56,860 bases of DNA from Elusimicrobiota bacterium (lineage in GTDB: Bacteria; Elusimicrobiota; Elusimicrobia; UBA1565): NCBI GenBank assembly GCA_016218495.1, contig JACRDU010000123.1, forward strand, positions 1 through 56,860. Direction: 5' to 3'. This document shows, piece after piece, positions 254-10,653 of this stretch (positions are counted from its first letter, which is position 1; every line of letters starts with the position of its first letter). A program made the translations under genes and the position numbers. The notes under the pieces are model-generated. The model saw only the letters and a program-made list of their open reading frames with translations. It was not told the DNA's origin and made no database searches.

Positions 254-711
254 AAGTACTCTTCGTCTGCACCGGGAACACCTGCCGCAGCGTCATCGCC
301 GAGCGCCTGCTCAAGAAGATGGCGGGCGACCGCGCTCTGGGGGCCTGGGAGGCCCGCTCGGCCGGGGTCGCCGCCGAGCGCTACTTCCCCATGCCCGAGG
401 GCGTCAAGAAGGCCCTGGCCGAGCGCGGCACCTCCCCCGACGGCCACATCCCGCAGCTGGTCGGCCGCGAGCTGATGGGCTGGGCCGACCTCGTGGTGGC
501 GATGACCCGCGGCCACCGCGAGGCCCTGCTCGACCAGTACCCCGAATTCACCGCCAAGACCAAGCTCTTCTCCGAGATCGCCGGCCGGGGCGAGGCCGAT
601 GTGGCCGACCCGATCGGCCAGCCGGACGCCGTCTACCGCCGCTGCCGCGACGAGATCGAGACCGGATTGGACGCTTTCCTGAGGGACCATGCATCTAAAA
701 AACCTGCGTGA
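250..711 (+). CDS. Low molecular weight protein-tyrosine phosphatase
   Basis: 153 aa, the usual size of the family. The P-loop is at the very N-terminus: VCTGNTCRS, with nucleophile C7 and R13 (C-x5-R-S). The general-acid Asp is in the ADPIG motif (D120). It hydrolyses phosphotyrosine, and in the YwlE subgroup phosphoarginine. The sua5-glyA context is that of ywlE, but substrate cannot be read from sequence. The ATG overlaps the sua5 stop by 4 bases, and the 3' end overlaps glyA by 23 bases, so translation is probably coupled. Confidence 0.88.
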
Positions 712-1960
712 ACAAGACCCGGAGCTCTTCAAGGCCGTCGTGGCCGAGACCCGCCGACAGTCCGAGAACCTCGAGCTGATCGCGTCGGAGAACTACGTCT
801 CGGAGGCCGTCCTGGAGGCCCAGGGCTCCGTCCTCACCAACAAATACGCCGAGGGCTACCCCGGCAAGCGCTACTACGGCGGCTGCGAGCACGTGGACGT
901 GGCCGAGTCCCTGGCCATCGACCGGGCCAAGCAGCTCTTCGGCAGCGAGCATGCCAACGTCCAGGCCCACTCCGGCACCCAGGCCAACATCGGGATGTAC
1001 CTCTCCGTCCTCGAGCCCGGCGACACCGTGATGGGGCTCAACCTCGCCCACGGCGGGCACCTCTCCCACGGCCATCCGAAGAACTTCTCCGGGAAGTACT
1101 TCAAGATCGTCCCCGTCAACGTCACGCGCGACACGGAGACCATCGATTACGAGGAGGCGGAGAAGCTCGTCGCCGAGCACAAGCCCAAGATGCTCTTCAT
1201 CGGGGCCTCGAACTACTCCCGCGTCATCGACTGGGCCCGCTTCAAGGCCATGGCCGATTCGGTCGGCGCCTACTTCTCCGCGGACGTGGCCCACTACGCA
1301 GGGCTCATCGCGGCGGGGGTCTACCCGTCCCCCGTCCCCATCGCCGACTTCGTGACCACCACCACCCACAAGACCCTGCGCGGCCCGCGGGGCGGCATGG
1401 TCCTGTGCAAGGGCAAGCACCAGAAGGCGCTGGACTCCATCACCTTCCCCGGCACGCAGGGCGGGCCGCTGATGCACGTCATCGCGGCGAAGGCCGTCTG
1501 CTTCGGCGAAGCCCTCAGGCCCGAGTTCAAGGCCTACCAGCGCCAGGTGCTGGCCAACGCGCGGCGCCTGGCCGGGGCGCTGGGCGACCGGGGATTCCGC
1601 ATCGTGGCCGGCGGCACGGACTGCCACCTGTTCTCCGTGGACCTGCGCCCCAAGAAGGTCACCGGGCGCGACGCCGAGCAGGCGCTCGACGCCGCGGGGA
1701 TAACCGTCAACAAGAACGCCATCCCCTACGACCCGGAGAAGCCCACGGTCTGCTCCGGCGTGCGCATCGGGACCCCGGCGGTCACCACCCGCGGGATGGG
1801 AGAGCGCGAGATGGACGAGGTCGCCGAGCTCATCGACGACGCCCTCGCCCGGCGCGGCGACGACGGCGCGCTCGGCGGCGTCAAGGACAGGGTGCGCAAG
1901 CTCACCGCGCGGTTCCCCATCTATGAGGGCCGCCTCGCCGAGGCCCTCGCCGCCGTATGA
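689..1960 (+). CDS. glyA: Serine hydroxymethyltransferase
   Basis: 423 aa, full length. It interconverts serine and glycine with tetrahydrofolate and is the main cytosolic source of one-carbon units. Family signatures: [18 protein letters not shown] near residue 30, [17 protein letters not shown], and the PLP-lysine segment [14 protein letters not shown] with K228 forming the Schiff base. The ATG at 689 lies inside the phosphatase gene; it gives the normal N-terminus ([13 protein letters not shown]), so the 23-base overlap is accepted. The stop overlaps the next gene's ATG by 4 bases. Confidence 0.97.
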
Positions 1961-2340
1961 TCGCCGAGATCCTGCTGGCCGACGACGAGGAGGGCATCCG
2001 TGGGCCCGTGCGCGACTTCCTACGCAGCCGCCACTTCATCGTCCGCGAGGCGTCCGACGGAGCGCAGGCCTTCGCGATGGCCGCCGAGGACAAGCCCCAC
2101 CTCATCATCATGGACATCGTGATGTCGGGGGTCTACGGCTCCTCCGCCGCCGCGCGCCTCAAGGACTACGAAGGGACCAAGGACATCCCCATCATCCTGG
2201 TCAGCGGCAGCGCCGGCGAAGCGGCCCTGCGCGACATCCTCAAGCGTCCCAACGTCCGGTTCCTGAAGAAGCCCTTCGAACTGAAGGTCCTGGAAGCCCT
2301 TATCCATGAGCTGCTGCCCGAAGGAGGCTATACCCGATGA
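1957..2340 (+). CDS. Single-domain response regulator receiver (CheY-like)
   Basis: 127 aa, only a receiver domain with no output domain. Acidic pocket D9/D10/E11 (LLADDEEG), phosphoacceptor D53 in LIIMDIVM, and the C-terminal K in FLKKPFE. The usual switch Thr/Ser is probably in ILVSGSAG. It presumably passes a phosphoryl signal to a partner by protein contact. No histidine kinase is next to it; it is sandwiched between glyA and an MTA phosphorylase with 4-base ATGA overlaps on both sides, so the context says nothing about the signal. Confidence 0.9.
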
Positions 2341-3218
2341 AGGGACGCAAGACCGACCGGACCTGCCGCCTGGCCGTCATCGGCGGCTCGGGCCTCTACC
2401 GGATGCAGGGCGTCTGCGACGTCCGCGAGCTGCGGCTGAAGACCCCCTTCGGCGCGCCCTCCGACGCGGTCATCACCGGGACCGTGGGCGGCGTCCGCGT
2501 GGCGTTCCTGCCCCGCCACGGCCGCGGCCACCGGCTGCTGCCCGGGGAAGTCCCCTGCCGCGCGAACATCTGGGCCCTCAAGTCGCTGGGCGTGGAGCGG
2601 ATCGTCTCGGTCAGCGCGGTCGGCTCCCTGCGCGAGGAGCTGGCCCCGCGCCACTTCGTGTTCCCGGACCAGCTGGCCGACGAGACGAAGGGCCGCCCGT
2701 CCACCTTCTTCGGCAAGGGCGTGGTCGCGCACGTGGCCTTCGCGCACCCGTTCTGCTCCGACATGGCCTCCCTCCTCTACGGGGAGACGCGCACCTTGGG
2801 CATCACGGCCCACAAGGGCGGCACCTACATCTGCATGGAGGGCCCCCTGTTCTCGACGAAGGCCGAGAGCCTGATGCACCGCCAGCTGGGCTATTCCATC
2901 ATCGGCATGACGGCCAGCCCCGAGGCGAAGCTGGCCCGGGAGGCGGAGGTCTGCTACACCCCCGTGGCCCTGGTCACCGACTACGACTGCTGGAAGGAAG
3001 ACGACCATGTGAGCACGGAGAAGGTCGTCGAGCACCTGCTGGCCAACGTCGAGAACGCCCAGCGCCTGCTCGCGGCCGCCCTGCCCAAGCTCGCCGAGCT
3101 CCCCCGGCAATGCGCCTGCGCCTCGGCGCTCAAGGGCGCGGTGTTCACGGACCCCAAGGCGATGGACAAGAAGACGAAGCGGGCCCTGGGCCCGCTCATC
3201 GGGAAATACCTATCATGA
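2337..3218 (+). CDS. S-methyl-5'-thioadenosine phosphorylase (MTAP/PNP family)
   Basis: 293 aa. Phosphate-site motif GGSGLY at the N-terminus, RHGRGH near residue 60, the substrate motif MEGPLFSTKAES near residue 180, then MTASPEAKLAREAE and TDYDCWK. The Asp in TDYDCW and the MTA-type spacing favour methylthioadenosine (methionine salvage, polyamine by-product) over guanosine or inosine, but a general 6-oxopurine phosphorylase cannot be excluded. The ATG overlaps the receiver gene's stop and the TGA overlaps the cytidine deaminase ATG. Confidence 0.88.
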   Translation: MKGRKTDRTCRLAVIGGSGLYRMQGVCDVRELRLKTPFGAPSDAVITGTVGGVRVAFLPRHGRGHRLLPGEVPCRANIWALKSLGVERIVSVSAVGSLREELAPRHFVFPDQLADETKGRPSTFFGKGVVAHVAFAHPFCSDMASLLYGETRTLGITAHKGGTYICMEGPLFSTKAESLMHRQLGYSIIGMTASPEAKLAREAEVCYTPVALVTDYDCWKEDDHVSTEKVVEHLLANVENAQRLLAAALPKLAELPRQCACASALKGAVFTDPKAMDKKTKRALGPLIGKYLS

Positions 3219-3700
3219 ACTCGACCCAATTCCGGGCCCTCGTCGACGCGGCCAAGCGCGCGCGCCTGAAAGCCTACTGCCCGTACTCCCGCTATCCTAT
3301 CGGGGCGGCCGTCCTCACCGACTCCGGGCGCATCCACGCCGGGGCCAACGTCGAGAACGCCTCCTACGGGCTCACCGTCTGCGGCGAGCGCGTCGCGGTG
3401 GCCAACGCCGTCACGCGCGGGGAGAAGTCCCTCAAGGCGGTCTGCGTCGTCGGACGCAGCCCTCGCCCATGCGGGGCCTGCCGGCAGTTCATCATTGAGT
3501 TCAGCACCAAGGACACGATGCTCATCATCGTGGACATCGGCGGCGACGGGCGCCGCGAGAGCGTGACGCGGGCTAAGATGTTCGCCATGCTGCCCGGCGC
3601 CTTCGACCCGCTCGAGGCCGGCCTGCTCCCCCCCAACCCGCAGAACCTGCTCAAGCGGCGCAAAGGCAAGAAGCAGCGCGCCCGCAAAGGCCAGAGGTAG
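3215..3700 (+). CDS. cdd: Cytidine deaminase
   Basis: 161 aa. It deaminates cytidine/deoxycytidine to uridine for pyrimidine salvage. Zinc-site motifs are NVENASYGLTVCGER (Cys ligand plus catalytic Glu) and PCGACRQ (two Cys ligands), typical of the small tetrameric class. The C-terminus has about 25 extra residues beyond the usual core, rich in Lys/Arg (KRRKGKKQRARKGQR), which may bind nucleic acid or be disordered. The ATG overlaps the MTA phosphorylase stop by 4 bases. Confidence 0.93.
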   Translation: MNSTQFRALVDAAKRARLKAYCPYSRYPIGAAVLTDSGRIHAGANVENASYGLTVCGERVAVANAVTRGEKSLKAVCVVGRSPRPCGACRQFIIEFSTKDTMLIIVDIGGDGRRESVTRAKMFAMLPGAFDPLEAGLLPPNPQNLLKRRKGKKQRARKGQR

Positions 3701-3704
3701 ACCA

Positions 3705-4088
3705 ATGGACCCCAAGACCCTCAAGGAAGTGCTCTCCTGGATGCGCTCCACGGACCTGACCGAGGTGGCATGGAACCGCGGCGGCACGGGATTCTCCCTG
3801 TCGTCGGACACCGCGCCGGCCATGCCCTCGGGAGCCTTCCCCGAGGCCCGGGTCGTATCGGTGTCCTCCGCCGAGGTCGGCGTTTTCCGCGCGGCGCCGC
3901 TGGGGAAGTCCCCCAAGGCCCAGGCCGGCGACGAGGTCTCGGCCGGGACCCTGCTCGGCCTCATCGACACCGGCCTCGCGAAGGTCGAGGTGAAGTCCCC
4001 CTCCTCAGGGAAGCTGCTGGCGGGGGTCGCCGAGGACGGGAAGCCCGTCGAGTACGGCCAGCCGCTGTTCTTCATCCAGCCCCGCTGA
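3705..4088 (+). CDS. AccB-like biotinyl-domain protein lacking the biotin lysine
   Basis: 127 aa. The C-terminal half aligns by eye with the biotin carboxyl carrier domain of acetyl-CoA carboxylase: AGDEVSAGTLLGLIDTG through SGKLLAGVAEDGKPVEYG to PLFFIQP. Where AccB carries EAMKM with the biotinylated lysine, this protein reads DTGLA, so the acceptor lysine is gone. A lysine does occur two residues later (AKVEVK) but not in the hairpin position. It is in the same operon as accC, two genes downstream. Possible roles: a non-biotinylated AccB paralogue that modulates the carboxylase, or a lipoyl/biotinyl-fold protein of another kind. Starts 4 bases after cdd. Confidence 0.7.
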   Translation: MDPKTLKEVLSWMRSTDLTEVAWNRGGTGFSLSSDTAPAMPSGAFPEARVVSVSSAEVGVFRAAPLGKSPKAQAGDEVSAGTLLGLIDTGLAKVEVKSPSSGKLLAGVAEDGKPVEYGQPLFFIQPR

Positions 4089-6181
4089 TGGCAGAGTTCC
4101 ACCCCGTCGCCTGCTCAAAATGCAAGAAGCCCGGCTCTCCGGACAAGTCGGAGTGCGCCTCTTGCGGCGGCCGGGTGGTGCGCACCTGCGGTTCCTGCGG
4201 GTTCAAGAACGCGGCGGCCAAGAAATACTGCGACGCCTGCGGCGAGAACTTCCTGCTGCCCCCGAAGGCCGCCCCGCCGCCCGCCCCCAAGGCCGAGCCG
4301 GCGAAGGCTCCCGCCCCCGCGCCGAAGCCCCCGCCCCCGAAGCCTGAGCCCAAACCCGAGCCCAAGCCCGAGCCGAAGCCCCAGATCCGCCTGCAGGACA
4401 TCAAGAAGCCCGAGCCCCGGGTGGAGCTGCCCGCGGACGCCGAACCCGAGGCGAAGGCCGAACCGAAGCCGGAGCCCAAAGTTCCCCCGAAACCGGAGCC
4501 CAAGCCGGAAGCGAAACCGGAACCCCGGCTGGAGCCGAAGCCCGAACCGTCGAAGGGCTCCAAAGACGAGGCGATGGAGCGCTACATCCCGAAGACCGTC
4601 ATCTCCCGCATCCCGAAGAAGTCGGACGGACAGCGGGTCGTCCGGGACGACGAACCGGTCCCCGACATGCGCCCGCCCGAGAAGGAGCCCCTGCCCAAGG
4701 ACGAGCCGCCGCCCAAGGACCTCGGCGGGCCGCCGCCCCCCCCCGCCAAGCGCACGCCGGTCAAGATGCGCCTGGAAGGCGACCCGGTCACCCCTCTCCC
4801 GAAGAAGCTCCCGGAAAGGCCGAAGGAACCGGCCAAGGAGCCGCCGAAGGACCTGCCCAAGCCCCCCGTGAAGCCGCTCGTCAAAGGCCAGCCCGAGGAG
4901 CTCGACCCCCGGCTCGTCAAAGGCTACGAGGGCCGCGAGCCGGCGCCGCCGGCTAAGGAGCCGCCGGCGCGGGAGCGCCAGGCGACGCCGCCCCCCAAGA
5001 AGGTCCAAGGCCCGTCCCAGACCTTCATACAGCGCAGGCCCAAGGCGGTATTCTCCACCGTGATGGCCCTCGTCCTGCTGGCCGCGGGCTTCGTCGTCTA
5101 CGGCCTGAAGGTCAAGCAGAAGAAGTCGCCGGCCGAGACCCTGGTCAAGGCCGCCGGAGACTACCTGTTCGCGCTCAAGCAGAAGGACTGGCCGGCGGCC
5201 TATTCCCAGCTCTCCTCCCCCTCCCGCAAGGCCGCGACGCTCGACGCCTTCAAGGGCCTCCAGGACGACTCGTCCTGGACCTTCGACGACATCAAGGCCG
5301 AAATCGTCGCCCCCGGCTGGGCCCTCGTGCGCTACAAGCTGTTCGGGGGCTCGGGCGGCGGGCAGGACGACTGGCTCGTCATGCAGCTCGAGGAGGGACA
5401 GTGGCGCCGGGCGTACTGGTGGACCCTGATGCCCGAGCTCGAGACCGCGCTCGGCCGCGCCGACCATGCCGCGGCCGCCCGGCTGGCGCGCGAGGCTCAG
5501 GCGATCGACCCGCTGGACCCCATGCCGCCGGCCTACTACTGCGAGGCGGCCCGGATCGCCGGGGACGAGAAGGCCGCCCTCGAAGCCTGCGCCAAGGCCC
5601 TCAAGATGGCCCAGTCCCTCCCGTCGCGGCTCGGCCCGGAAGGCATCTTCCGCATCAACCACATCCTCGCCGACATCGAACGGAACACCCAGAACCGGCC
5701 CGCCGAGTCCGTCCGCGCGCTGGCTCTCCTGCTGGCCTATCCGAGGCTCGACGACGCCCAACGCTGCGACCTCACCATCGCCAAAGCGGAATCCGAGATG
5801 CAGGCCTCCCTGCCGACGGAGGCCCTCGAGAGCTTCCGGCAGGCCAAGGCGCTGTGCCGCCTCGACGCCGACCAGGCCTACGCCGCCCGCTCCGCCTCCG
5901 TGCTCTCCGGCGACGGCGGGCCGGAGGCGGTGGCCCTGGTCCAGGGCCACCGCATGCCCGGAGACGAGATGACGCTGGCGGAATGGCGCGAGAAGTCGCG
6001 CGGCGAGCTCGCCAAGCGCCTGAAGACCCGCCCCAAGGACCTCCCCGAGGAGAAGTGGGGCGCCGTCCATGCGTCCGGAGCCGTCTACACGGTGACCCTG
6101 GCCAGCGGCCGCGACACCGTCCTGACCGCCGAGGTCGACCTCTTCACCCAGAAAATCAAGGTGGACATCCATGTTCAATAA
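4088..6181 (+). CDS. Zinc-ribbon, Pro/Lys/Glu-repeat membrane protein with C-terminal TPR-like domain
   Basis: 697 aa, function unknown. N-terminus has four CxxC knuckles in 55 residues (CSKC, CASC, CGSC, CDAC), i.e. two zinc ribbons. Then about 250 residues of low complexity dominated by repeated PKPE, and one membrane span at about residues 321-342 (VMALVLLAAGFVVYG). The last 350 residues look like a small alpha/beta domain followed by helical TPR-like repeats. One span and no signal peptide place the ribbons in the cytoplasm and the helical domain outside. It sits between the accB-like gene and accC, overlapping both (TGATG at its start, 11 bases at its end). Confidence 0.75.
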   Translation: MAEFHPVACSKCKKPGSPDKSECASCGGRVVRTCGSCGFKNAAAKKYCDACGENFLLPPKAAPPPAPKAEPAKAPAPAPKPPPPKPEPKPEPKPEPKPQIRLQDIKKPEPRVELPADAEPEAKAEPKPEPKVPPKPEPKPEAKPEPRLEPKPEPSKGSKDEAMERYIPKTVISRIPKKSDGQRVVRDDEPVPDMRPPEKEPLPKDEPPPKDLGGPPPPPAKRTPVKMRLEGDPVTPLPKKLPERPKEPAKEPPKDLPKPPVKPLVKGQPEELDPRLVKGYEGREPAPPAKEPPARERQATPPPKKVQGPSQTFIQRRPKAVFSTVMALVLLAAGFVVYGLKVKQKKSPAETLVKAAGDYLFALKQKDWPAAYSQLSSPSRKAATLDAFKGLQDDSSWTFDDIKAEIVAPGWALVRYKLFGGSGGGQDDWLVMQLEEGQWRRAYWWTLMPELETALGRADHAAAARLAREAQAIDPLDPMPPAYYCEAARIAGDEKAALEACAKALKMAQSLPSRLGPEGIFRINHILADIERNTQNRPAESVRALALLLAYPRLDDAQRCDLTIAKAESEMQASLPTEALESFRQAKALCRLDADQAYAARSASVLSGDGGPEAVALVQGHRMPGDEMTLAEWREKSRGELAKRLKTRPKDLPEEKWGAVHASGAVYTVTLASGRDTVLTAEVDLFTQKIKVDIHVQ

Positions 6182-7538
6182 GATCCTCATCGCCAACCGC
6201 TCCGAGATCGCCGTGCGCGTCATCCGCGCCTGCCGCGAGCTGGGAATCAAGAGCGTCGCCGTGTATTCCGAAGCCGACCGCTCGTCCCGGCACGTATCGC
6301 TGGCCGACGAGGCCGTCTGCATCGGCCCGGCCCCGTCGGTGGACAGCTACCTCCGGGTCGACCGGATCCTGGCCGCCGCGAAGTCCACCGGCGCCGACGC
6401 CGTCCACCCCGGCTACGGGTTCCTGTCCGAGCGGGCCCATTTCGCCGACGCCTGCGCCGAACAGGGGGTCACATTCATCGGGCCTCCCGGCAAGGCCATC
6501 CGCTCCCTCGGGGACAAGCTCTCCGGCAAGGCCGTCGCCGAAGCGGCCAAGGTCCCTTGCGTCCCCGGCATGACCTTCTCCGGGAACGTAGACGCCGCCT
6601 TCTTGAAGAGGGTGGAGGCCATCGGCTTCCCGGTCATGGTCAAGGCCTCGGCGGGCGGGGGCGGAAAGGGCCTGCGCGTGGTCAGGGAGCCCTCGGTCCT
6701 CAAAGGCGAGCTGGAGAGGGCCTCCACCGAGGCGAAGGCGGCCTTCGGAGACGGGACGGTCTTCATCGAGAAGTTCATCGAGAACCCCCGCCATGTGGAG
6801 ATCCAGCTCGCCGCGGACGTGCACGGGAACGTGGCCGCCTGCGTCGAACGCGACTGCACCGTGCAGCGCCGCCACCAGAAGCTCATCGAGGAGTCGCCGT
6901 CGCCCGCCGTCACCCCGGCCATCCGCAAGAGGATGCAGGAGGCCGCGGTCCGCCTGGCCAAAGGCTGCGGCTACTCGAACGTGGGCACCGTCGAGTTCCT
7001 GCTCGACCGCAAGGGCGACTTCTACTTCATCGAGGTCAACACCCGGCTCCAGGTCGAACACCCCGTCACCGAGACCGTGACCGGGCTCGACCTGGTCAAG
7101 ACGCAGATCCGCCTCGCCGCCGGCGAGAAGCTCCCCTTCTCCCAGGAGCGCGCCTCCGAGATCCGCTGCCACGCCATCGAGCACCGCATCAACGCGGAGG
7201 ACTCGACCCGCGGCTTCGCCCCCTGCCCCGGCCTGGTGGAGTCGCTGACCTGGCCCGGCGGCGCCGGCGTGCGCCTCGACACGCACCTCTACGCCGGCTA
7301 TACCGTCCCCTCGTACTACGACTCCCTGATCGCCAAGCTCATCGTCTGGAGCGACGACAGGAAGTCCGCCATCGCCCGTTCGCTGCGGGCGCTCGGCGAG
7401 CTCGAGGTGCGGGGCATCGAGACGACCGCTCCCTTCCACAGGAAGGTCCTTGCCCACCCGAGGTTCTCGTCCGGGGACTTCGACACGTCTTTCGCCGACC
7501 AGCTTCTGAAGGAGGAGGCGGCCGCGGCCGCCGTTTAG
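6171..7538 (+). CDS. accC: Biotin carboxylase subunit of acetyl-CoA carboxylase
   Basis: 455 aa, normal length. It carboxylates the biotin on the carrier protein using ATP and bicarbonate, the first step of fatty acid synthesis (or of another acyl-CoA carboxylase). N-terminal motif NKILIANRSEIAVRVIRACR, HPGYGFLSE, the ATP-grasp glycine loop ASAGGGGKGLR, and the metal/catalytic segment FIEVNTRLQVEHPVTE. The start overlaps the previous gene by 11 bases and gives the expected N-terminus. The only carrier-like protein in the window lacks the biotin lysine, so the real carrier must be elsewhere. Confidence 0.95.
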   Translation: MFNKILIANRSEIAVRVIRACRELGIKSVAVYSEADRSSRHVSLADEAVCIGPAPSVDSYLRVDRILAAAKSTGADAVHPGYGFLSERAHFADACAEQGVTFIGPPGKAIRSLGDKLSGKAVAEAAKVPCVPGMTFSGNVDAAFLKRVEAIGFPVMVKASAGGGGKGLRVVREPSVLKGELERASTEAKAAFGDGTVFIEKFIENPRHVEIQLAADVHGNVAACVERDCTVQRRHQKLIEESPSPAVTPAIRKRMQEAAVRLAKGCGYSNVGTVEFLLDRKGDFYFIEVNTRLQVEHPVTETVTGLDLVKTQIRLAAGEKLPFSQERASEIRCHAIEHRINAEDSTRGFAPCPGLVESLTWPGGAGVRLDTHLYAGYTVPSYYDSLIAKLIVWSDDRKSAIARSLRALGELEVRGIETTAPFHRKVLAHPRFSSGDFDTSFADQLLKEEAAAAAV

Positions 7539-7539
7539 A

Positions 7540-8142
7540 ATGACAACGACCATCGACACCAAGGCCGTCATCGTCTCCAAGCTCGAAGAATCGTCCAAGG
7601 TCATCAAGGCCACGGCCGCCCAGGCCGACACCCTGGCCCGCATGGCCGACGTGCTGGTGAACTGCTTCCAGAACGGCCACAAGATCCTGACCTTCGGCAA
7701 CGGCGGCTCCGCCTGCGACGCCCAGAACTTCGCCGACGAGCTGGTCGGCCGCTACGAGCGCAACCGCCCCGGCCTGCCCGCGATGGCGCTGACCACGAAC
7801 ACCGGGGACCTGACCTCGATCGGCAACGACTTCGGCTTCGAGTTCATCTTCGAGCGCCAGCTGCGCGCCCACGCCAAGCCCGACGACATCGCGGTGGCCA
7901 TCTCGACCAGCGGGAACTCCCAGAACGTCCTCAAGGCCGCCAAGGCCGCCCATGAGCTCGGCCTGACCGTGCTGGGCTTCACCGGCGAGACCGGCGGGAA
8001 GCTCAAGCCGCTGTGCGACATGTGCCTGTGCGTGCCCTCCAAGAGCGTCGCGCGCATCCAGGAGGCGCACATCACGGCCATCCAGATCCTCTGCGGGCTC
8101 ATCGAGGACACGCTCTTCCCGGATGCCCCCAAGGCCCACTAA
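7540..8142 (+). CDS. gmhA: Phosphoheptose isomerase (D-sedoheptulose 7-phosphate isomerase)
   Basis: 200 aa SIS-domain protein. It converts sedoheptulose 7-phosphate to heptose 7-phosphate, the first step of ADP-heptose synthesis for LPS core or glycoprotein heptose. Motifs: FGNGGSACDAQNFADELVGR, ALTTNTGDLTSIGND, ISTSGNSQNV (sugar-phosphate site) and QEAHITAIQILC, whose His is a zinc ligand in GmhA. It starts one base after accC stops. The heptose-1-phosphate adenylyltransferase is 470 bases downstream, separated by a toxin-antitoxin pair. Confidence 0.92.
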   Translation: MTTTIDTKAVIVSKLEESSKVIKATAAQADTLARMADVLVNCFQNGHKILTFGNGGSACDAQNFADELVGRYERNRPGLPAMALTTNTGDLTSIGNDFGFEFIFERQLRAHAKPDDIAVAISTSGNSQNVLKAAKAAHELGLTVLGFTGETGGKLKPLCDMCLCVPSKSVARIQEAHITAIQILCGLIEDTLFPDAPKAH

Positions 8143-9780: not shown

Positions 9781-10653
9781 ATGAAACCCTTAGCGCGCGC
9801 CCTCGCCCTCACCCTGTCGCTTGCCCTGGTCACGCCTTCCTACGCCCTGTTCGGCTGGGGCGACAAGCCGGCCGAAGGCCCTCTGGGCGCAGTCCTGGCC
9901 GACGTCTCCGGCCCGGTGACGGTCAAACGCGCCGCCGGAGGCGACTTCGCCGCGGCGGCGTCCCAGACCCAGCTCGACACCGGGGACACCCTCAAGACCG
10001 GCTCCGGCGGGCGCGCCGTCGTCGTCTTCCTCGACGGCTCCAAGATGCAGATCACCGGCAACTCCACCTTCGCCGTAGCGGGCCACAGCGCCAAGAAGGT
10101 CTCGGTGAAGATAGACGTCGGCACCCTGCAGTTCTGGATCAAAAAGGTCGCCGGGCGGCGCCGCTACGAGATGCGCACGCCCACCGCCGTGGCCGCCGTG
10201 CGCGGGACGGTCGGGGAGATCGATGTGGCCGTCGACGGCTCCTCGAACTTCTCCCTCTTCGAGGGGAGCCTGGGCATCACCGACTCGCGCGGCGTCGAAG
10301 TGCGCATCGAGGGCAACCAGCAGGTCGCCTCCGACACCGGCAAAGGGCTCTCCGAGGCCAAGGTCCAGGCCCTGCCGCCGGCTAAGGCCGGCCCGCCCCC
10401 GCCCCCGCCCGTCGTCCCCGGCGAGCCGGGCGGACCCAAGCTCCCTCCGCCGCCCCCCGGTCCGAAGCAGGGCATGCTGCCTCCCCCGCCTCCCGGACCG
10501 AAGCCGGGCATGCCGCCGCCGCCGCCCCCTGGAGCCCTGCCGCCGCCCCCGGAGGGAGGCTTCCCCCCGCCCCCGGATGGCTTCCTGCCGCCGCCGCCGA
10601 ACCCGACGCAGGATACCAAGGTCACCAATGAGGTGAGCCCGTCGTCGCCGTAG
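9781..10653 (+). CDS. Secreted FecR-domain protein with polyproline tail
   Basis: 290 aa. Sec signal peptide at residues 1-22 (LALTLSLALVTPSYA). Residues 30-195 are a FecR-like beta domain: VSGPVTVKRA, TGDTLKTGSGGRAVVVFLDGS, then the hallmark MRTPTAVAAVRGT. The last 85 residues are runs of 4-6 prolines, which would need elongation factor P to translate. FecR domains in non-TonB contexts are common periplasmic beta domains; no sigma factor or TonB receptor is nearby, so iron sensing is not supported. Confidence 0.82.
   Translation: MKPLARALALTLSLALVTPSYALFGWGDKPAEGPLGAVLADVSGPVTVKRAAGGDFAAAASQTQLDTGDTLKTGSGGRAVVVFLDGSKMQITGNSTFAVAGHSAKKVSVKIDVGTLQFWIKKVAGRRRYEMRTPTAVAAVRGTVGEIDVAVDGSSNFSLFEGSLGITDSRGVEVRIEGNQQVASDTGKGLSEAKVQALPPAKAGPPPPPPVVPGEPGGPKLPPPPPGPKQGMLPPPPPGPKPGMPPPPPPGALPPPPEGGFPPPPDGFLPPPPNPTQDTKVTNEVSPSSP

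What the first reader, a model, noticed from the sequence alone, without database searches (positions are those of the whole stretch)
3705..4088. AccB-like protein without the biotin-accepting lysine, in an accC operon
The biotinyl domain is recognisable, but the hairpin that reads EAMKM in AccB reads DTGLA. Plants have non-biotinylated BADC proteins that inhibit acetyl-CoA carboxylase by replacing BCCP; a bacterial equivalent encoded beside the biotin carboxylase would be a new control layer.
Basis: partly seen in the sequence, partly recalled or inferred. Interest (0 to 1): 0.6.

Follow-up and report, generated by a model that had tools for sequence, protein, structure and literature searches.

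The report
Biotin-less AccB paralogue beside accC
Most sampled genomes of one class of Elusimicrobiota bacteria keep, next to the gene for the enzyme that loads CO2 onto biotin, a conserved copy of the biotin-carrier protein that has lost its biotin site, while a normal carrier is encoded elsewhere; it looks like an independently evolved bacterial counterpart of the plant BADC proteins that help assemble or restrain fatty-acid synthesis.

Summary
Window 3705-4088 encodes a 127-aa AccB homologue with both AccB domains. The hairpin that reads EAMKM in AccB reads DTGLA; in the alignment and in a confident AlphaFold2 model the biotinyl-lysine position is Leu91. The genome has one accC (this operon) and a canonical AccB (EAMKV) on another contig, between pnp and ftsK. 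This is not a local defect. Elusimicrobiota carry two AccB paralogues in fixed positions. The pnp-ftsK copy kept EAMK in 73 of 73 sequences. The accC-linked copy forms its own clade, is under purifying selection, and has lost the biotin site repeatedly: EAMR, ETMR or EAMQ in five genomes, and a remodelled hairpin with no Met-Lys in 76 sequences of the window's class. Outside the phylum 71 of 72 sampled AccBs keep the lysine; the exception again pairs a lysine-less accC-linked AccB with a normal second one. Best reading: a non-catalytic AccC partner working like plant BADC, probably in assembly or stoichiometry, possibly inhibition. Binding to AccC, lack of biotinylation and direction of effect are untested. 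Some relatives retain a tip lysine in an E-x-[GA]-K context.

The parts
3705..4088 (+). accC-linked AccB paralogue ('C-copy'), 127 aa, without the biotin lysine
   Evidence: ORF; PF00364; profile-profile match over its full length to Elusimicrobiota C-copies that keep the Met, E 4.9e-32, and to canonical AccB, E 1.4e-19
3705..3806 (+). AccB-type N-terminal domain (residues 1-34: helix 3-14, strands 18-23 and 30-34)
   Evidence: AlphaFold2 model; hhalign from residue 1 or 4 onward
3861..4076 (+). biotinyl-like domain (residues 53-124)
   Evidence: PF00364; Foldseek to 1bdo, 9a87, 4hr7
3966..3980 (+). hairpin D88-T89-G90-L91-A92 in place of E-A-M-K-M; Leu91 (3975-3977) at the biotin-lysine position
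   Evidence: alignments and model
6171..7538 (+). accC, biotin carboxylase, the only one found in the genome
   Evidence: TIGR00514 630 bits against a cut-off of 626.5; only PF02785 hit in the genome
4088..6181 (+). 697-aa protein with a double-zinc-ribbon-like N-terminus and a Pro/Glu/Lys-rich region, lying between the C-copy and accC and overlapping both
   Evidence: DZR below cut-off; present between the two genes in most genomes of the order, absent where the genes are 3-15 bases apart
3221..3700 (+). cytidine deaminase, 4 bases upstream of the C-copy
   Evidence: PF00383; conserved neighbour
2337..3218 (+). MTAP/purine nucleoside phosphorylase-like gene, conserved neighbour
   Evidence: ORF; synteny; name from sequence resemblance, not tested by profile
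689..1960 (+). glyA-like gene, conserved neighbour
   Evidence: ORF; synteny; name from sequence resemblance
7540..8142 (+). SIS-domain protein (GmhA-like), 1 base after accC
   Evidence: PF13580; synteny

Best explanation
The protein is a non-catalytic AccB paralogue that has given up carrying biotin but kept the AccB body, and works as a partner subunit of AccC. SHOWN: sequence and predicted fold of AccB with the biotin lysine, the preceding Met and the motif around them gone; conserved position upstream of the single accC with tight spacing; canonical biotin-site AccB elsewhere in the same genomes; purifying selection; repeated loss of the biotin site in this copy only. INFERRED: it binds AccC, and probably the canonical AccB through the N-terminal domain, in place of one AccB protomer, fixing the stoichiometry and assembly of the biotin carboxylase-carrier subcomplex that serves the genome's PCC-type carboxyltransferases. 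LESS CERTAIN: whether the net effect is activating (assembly 'glue', favoured because the gene is near-universal in the class and apparently co-transcribed with accC) or inhibitory (competition with the biotinylated AccB).
For: Lysine and Met missing, fold kept. Canonical AccB elsewhere: EAMK in 73 of 73 pnp-linked copies. Single accC in the window's genome. Synteny glyA-MTAP-CDA-C-copy-(zinc-ribbon)-accC-SIS across the order, and C-copy upstream of accC across the phylum wherever the flank was long enough to see it. dN/dS 0.05-0.55 for pairs at 60-92% identity. Phylogeny: pnp-linked copies one clade (100/97), remodelled C-copies one clade (96/87), all C-copies separated from canonical AccB of the phylum and of other phyla by a 100/99 branch. 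EAMR, ETMR or EAMQ in five genomes whose second copy keeps EAMK. The Asn three residues after the lysine, invariant in AccB (72 of 72 outside, 41 of 41 pnp-linked), is already Lys, Arg or Thr in all 31 C-copies that keep the Met, so specialisation preceded loss of the lysine. The stretch between start and hairpin tip is shorter in the remodelled clade (median 88-90 residues against 107 in C-copies that keep the Met and 124 outside), as expected if a swinging arm is no longer needed. Precedent: plant BADC.
Against: No interaction or biotinylation data. In family f6 and a few others a lysine does sit at the tip in an E[VIA][GA]K context (Lys at the tip in 19 of 30 remodelled sequences outside the order, 6 of 46 within it), and modification there is not excluded. 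Direction of effect unknown. The R and Q variants rest on one assembled genome each.
Confidence: 0.6

Rival explanations
1. It is a competitive inhibitor: it occupies the AccB site on AccC and lowers carboxylase flux, as first proposed for plant BADC.
For: Same anatomy as above; the plant literature proposed inhibition first; a different accBC-linked protein, YqhY of B. subtilis, restrains ACCase (PMC5437119).
Against: Apparent co-transcription with the only accC and near-universal conservation in the class fit a structural subunit better than an occasional inhibitor; in vitro work on BADC favours assembly.
Confidence: 0.2
2. It is a transcriptional or biotin-pool regulator: like the N-terminal part of E. 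coli AccB it autoregulates its operon, or it titrates AccC away from AccB so that the biotin ligase can biotinylate AccB.
For: The AccB N-terminal domain is conserved; in E. coli AccB represses accBC through that domain, and AccC-bound AccB is poorly biotinylated (PMC3896788).
Against: The biotinyl-like domain is conserved as well, which autoregulation through the N-terminus would not need.
Confidence: 0.08
3. It is still a carrier in some lineages, modified at the displaced or context-changed lysine.
For: f6 members have E-V-G-K at the tip; the 26 C-copies with intact Met-Lys could be biotinylated.
Against: The residue at the tip varies freely in the window's order (Lys in 6 of 46), and K93 of the window is not conserved (Lys in 11 of 46); a real attachment site would be invariant, as in the pnp-linked copy.
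Confidence: 0.08
4. A decaying relic of accB kept only because its translation is coupled to accC.
For: Gene spacing is very tight.
Against: dN/dS well below 1 in every pair, no stop inside any listed homologue, class-wide retention, invariant W12, D17, L18, G59, G67, G102, G118 and L121.
Confidence: 0.04

Closest known systems
Plant BADC proteins (BADC1-3, plastid heteromeric acetyl-CoA carboxylase)
   Same: AccB/BCCP homologue lacking the AMKL biotinylation motif, coexisting with true BCCP and a biotin carboxylase
   Different: Bacterial and encoded in the accC operon, probably an independent origin; interaction with BC and BCCP not tested; the plant paper describes BADC as unique to the plant enzyme (PMC11926652)
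AccB / BCCP (TIGR00531)
   Same: Both domains, fold, position upstream of accC
   Different: No Met-Lys motif, 37.8 bits against a cut-off of 115.2, shortened stretch before the hairpin
YqhY (Asp23 family) of the accBC-yqhY operon in Bacillus subtilis
   Same: Operon-linked candidate ACCase controller
   Different: Unrelated protein family
Non-catalytic 'glue' subunit of certain bacterial acyl-CoA carboxylases (Gago et al., as cited in PMC11926652)
   Same: Non-catalytic assembly subunit
   Different: No resemblance to AccB that I know of; not compared here

Membership tests
AccB / BCCP (biotin carboxyl carrier protein) | Lysine in a Met-Lys motif at the hairpin tip | tested here: not met
   Leu91; 0 of 46 order-level homologues have Met-Lys
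AccB / BCCP (biotin carboxyl carrier protein) | Curated equivalog cut-off TIGR00531 (115.2 bits) | tested here: not met
   37.8 bits; the genome's canonical copy scores 126.5
AccB / BCCP (biotin carboxyl carrier protein) | N-terminal AccB domain plus flattened-barrel biotinyl domain | tested here: met
   hhalign over the whole length; AlphaFold2 and Foldseek to 1bdo
AccB / BCCP (biotin carboxyl carrier protein) | Biotinylated in vivo | not testable with these tools
   needs streptavidin blot or mass spectrometry
Plant BADC | BCCP homologue without the biotinylation motif | tested here: met
Plant BADC | True BCCP and biotin carboxylase in the same genome | tested here: met
Plant BADC | Binds BC and BCCP and alters ACCase assembly or activity | not testable with these tools
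   no complex prediction or binding data available
Plant BADC | Common descent with the plant proteins | not tested
   no BADC sequence was at hand; among the sequences compared the nearest are other Elusimicrobiota C-copies, some with intact Met-Lys, which argues for an independent origin

The most novel reading that the evidence does not exclude
In the phylum Elusimicrobiota the accB gene of the accBC operon has been converted, several times independently (about four to six, plus once in an unrelated candidate genome), into a dedicated non-carrier subunit of biotin carboxylase, so that the acyl-CoA carboxylases of much of a bacterial phylum are BC-BCCP-pseudoBCCP machines convergent with the plant plastid enzyme.
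Probability: 0.45. Interest if true: 0.78.

Novelty: new variant of a known kind. Interest (0 to 1): 0.62.

Why it matters
Acetyl-CoA carboxylase is the committed step of fatty-acid synthesis and an antibacterial target, and how bacteria control it is unsettled. Non-catalytic BCCP paralogues are described as unique to plants; an independent bacterial case, with natural before-and-after lineages that keep or lose the lysine in the same gene slot, would show that pseudo-BCCP subunits evolve readily and would allow a direct test of why (assembly or inhibition).

Tried and rejected
1) 'All homologues lack a lysine' was my first reading; a careful alignment showed a lysine at the tip column in many family f6 sequences (E-[VIA]-[GA]-K) and 6 of 46 in the order, so the claim is now limited to loss of the Met-Lys motif and of lysine conservation. 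2) A simple pattern scored L176 as 'G' in the tree labels; by alignment it reads EVLK; it lies inside the remodelled clade, so the counts stand. 3) Sequencing error or local decay: rejected by 46 order-level and 30 further class-level homologues and by dN/dS. 4) A missing canonical accB: rejected. 5) A second accC for which the two AccBs would be private partners: only one accC was found (genome 95% complete). 6) A classical AccA/AccD carboxyltransferase: none found; three PCC-type carboxyltransferases instead. 7) Family alignment A1 was too diverse for a genome-collection scan and was replaced by A2. 8) One of the proteins typed into (protein 2) differed from the locus by a typing slip and is not used. 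9) Literature searches found no report of a bacterial lysine-less AccB paralogue; the library is open-access only.

Full report
WHAT IS THERE. The ORF at 3705-4088 encodes 127 residues. Pfam finds a Biotin_lipoyl domain at residues 53-124. Aligned without gaps to AccB, the segment E-A-M-K-M reads D88-T89-G90-L91-A92; the biotin-accepting lysine is Leu91. An AlphaFold2 model (mean pLDDT 83.3, blocks of the biotinyl domain mostly 89-96) gives a helix-strand-strand N-terminal unit, an unordered linker and a biotinyl barrel whose hairpin turn is T89-A92; the nearest solved structure is the E. coli BCCP biotinyl domain 1bdo (rmsd 1.7 A, TM-score 0.91 by target), followed by Arabidopsis BCCP1 9a87. 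The protein is below the BCCP equivalog cut-off (37.8 of 115.2 bits) that the genome's other AccB passes (126.5).

THE GENOME. The window lies in a 4.15-Mb, 95%-complete genome. It has one biotin carboxylase, the accC of this operon. A canonical AccB with EAMKV lies on contig C132 between pnp and ftsK. No AccA/AccD pair was found; three PCC-type carboxyltransferases are present. The operon is tight: the cytidine-deaminase gene ends 4 bases upstream; the C-copy, a zinc-ribbon-like gene and accC overlap one another.

CONSERVATION. 53 of 57 genomes searched, the window's own included, carry an orthologue at E below 1e-16. In the 40 regions taken out with flanks, its neighbours are glyA, MTAP, cytidine deaminase, accC and the SIS gene, apart from a few contigs or lineages where some could not be seen; the zinc-ribbon gene is sometimes absent, leaving mostly 3-15 bases between the C-copy and accC. 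All 46 distinct order-level sequences lack Met-Lys; the tip residue is variable, with Lys in 6 of 46 and never preceded by Met. Pairs at 60-92% identity have dN/dS 0.05-0.55, so the protein is maintained.

THE PHYLUM. Record titles of close matches identify Elusimicrobia/Elusimicrobiota. A profile search matched 290 of 295 genomes of the phylum, counting either AccB copy. Reading representatives showed two AccB paralogues per genome in fixed positions. The pnp-ftsK copy keeps EAMK in 41 of 41 plus 32 of 32 sequences (one of the 41, L087, is a foreign-looking AccB, see below). The copy directly upstream of accC comes in three states: EAMK, ETMK or ECMK (26 sequences, from families of other classes and some of the same class); EAMR, ETMR or EAMQ (5 genomes: L148, L153, L158, L160, L135), each with an intact second copy; and remodelled hairpins without Met-Lys (46 in the window's order, 30 in other families of its class). 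In family f6 the remodelled hairpin reads E[VIA][GA]K, so a lysine is present but out of its motif. All 31 C-copies that keep the Met already differ at the Asn that is invariant in canonical AccB, so the copy was specialised before it lost the lysine. In a few genomes, such as G259, only the pnp-linked copy was found.

PHYLOGENY. In a tree of 92 AccB-family proteins the pnp-linked copies are one clade (100/97), the remodelled C-copies one clade (96/87), and all C-copies are separated from pnp-linked and foreign AccBs by a branch with 100/99 support. On a tree of the linked AccC proteins the lysine state needs at least 6 changes, 5 forced by well-supported branches; this count includes the outgroup case L277. 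If lysine cannot be regained, the tree implies six losses inside the phylum; allowing an R-to-K reversal lowers it to about four. The deep branches of the AccC tree are weak, and the R and Q states rest on single assemblies.

OUTSIDE THE PHYLUM. A scan of GTDB genomes with a pattern that does not include the hairpin (VEYGQPLF) returned 72 AccBs from other phyla, nearly all with accC close downstream; 71 have the lysine. The exception, L277 ('bacterium isolate Yes70-31'), reads EVMG, lies in a classical efp-accB-accC run, and its genome has a second AccB with EAMKLFNE. The same combination thus arose elsewhere.

MECHANISM. What survives in the C-copy is what an AccC partner needs: the N-terminal domain, the biotinyl barrel, the gene position. 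What is lost is what a carrier needs: the lysine, its Met, and part of the stretch before the hairpin. The economical reading is a non-catalytic subunit that takes an AccB place in the AccC complex. In plants the equivalent BADC proteins bind BC and BCCP; they were proposed as inhibitors and later found in reconstitution to promote assembly (PMC11926652). Near-universal retention in the class and apparent co-transcription with the only accC favour assembly here, but this is inference; nothing in the sequence decides it. E. coli AccB autoregulates accBC through its N-terminal domain and AccC-bound AccB is poorly biotinylated (PMC3896788), so a regulatory variant is a live rival. B. subtilis YqhY shows that accBC operons elsewhere do carry an ACCase controller, of an unrelated family (PMC5437119).

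NOVELTY. The plant literature calls BADC unique to the plant enzyme, and the searches made here found no bacterial case, within an open-access library. I rate it a new variant of a known kind: works like BADC (likely, untested), not shown to be BADC.

Noticed in passing
window 4088-6181: A 697-aa protein with a zinc-ribbon-like start and a long Pro/Glu/Lys-rich stretch sits between the AccB-like gene and accC in most genomes of the order but not in others; its C-terminal half is conserved and unassigned by Pfam.
   Followed up: partly
L277 and L301 (record JASEHU010000005.1 and same genome): Unrelated candidate genome with a classical efp-accB-accC run in which AccB reads EVMG instead of EAMK, and a second AccB with EAMKLFNE elsewhere.
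   Followed up: yes
L087 (G015:C272): A typical foreign-looking AccB (EAMKLMNEI) in an Elusimicrobiota assembly listed with 6% contamination; probably a contaminant contig.
   Followed up: no
family f6 C-copies, e.g. L164, L167, L173: Hairpin E-V-G-K-D: a lysine at the biotin position without the preceding Met; could be a test of ligase specificity.
   Followed up: partly
C-copies that keep the Met at the hairpin (31 sequences, e.g. L134, L136): The Asn three residues after the biotin lysine, invariant in 72 foreign and 41 pnp-linked AccBs, is Lys, Arg or Thr in all of them.
   Followed up: partly
G000 contigs C104, C108, C110: Three PCC-type carboxyltransferase genes and no AccA/AccD, all apparently sharing one AccC and one biotin-site AccB.
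   Followed up: partly
window 9781-10653: A FecR-like secreted protein with a long proline-rich tail, judged from the translation only.
   Followed up: no
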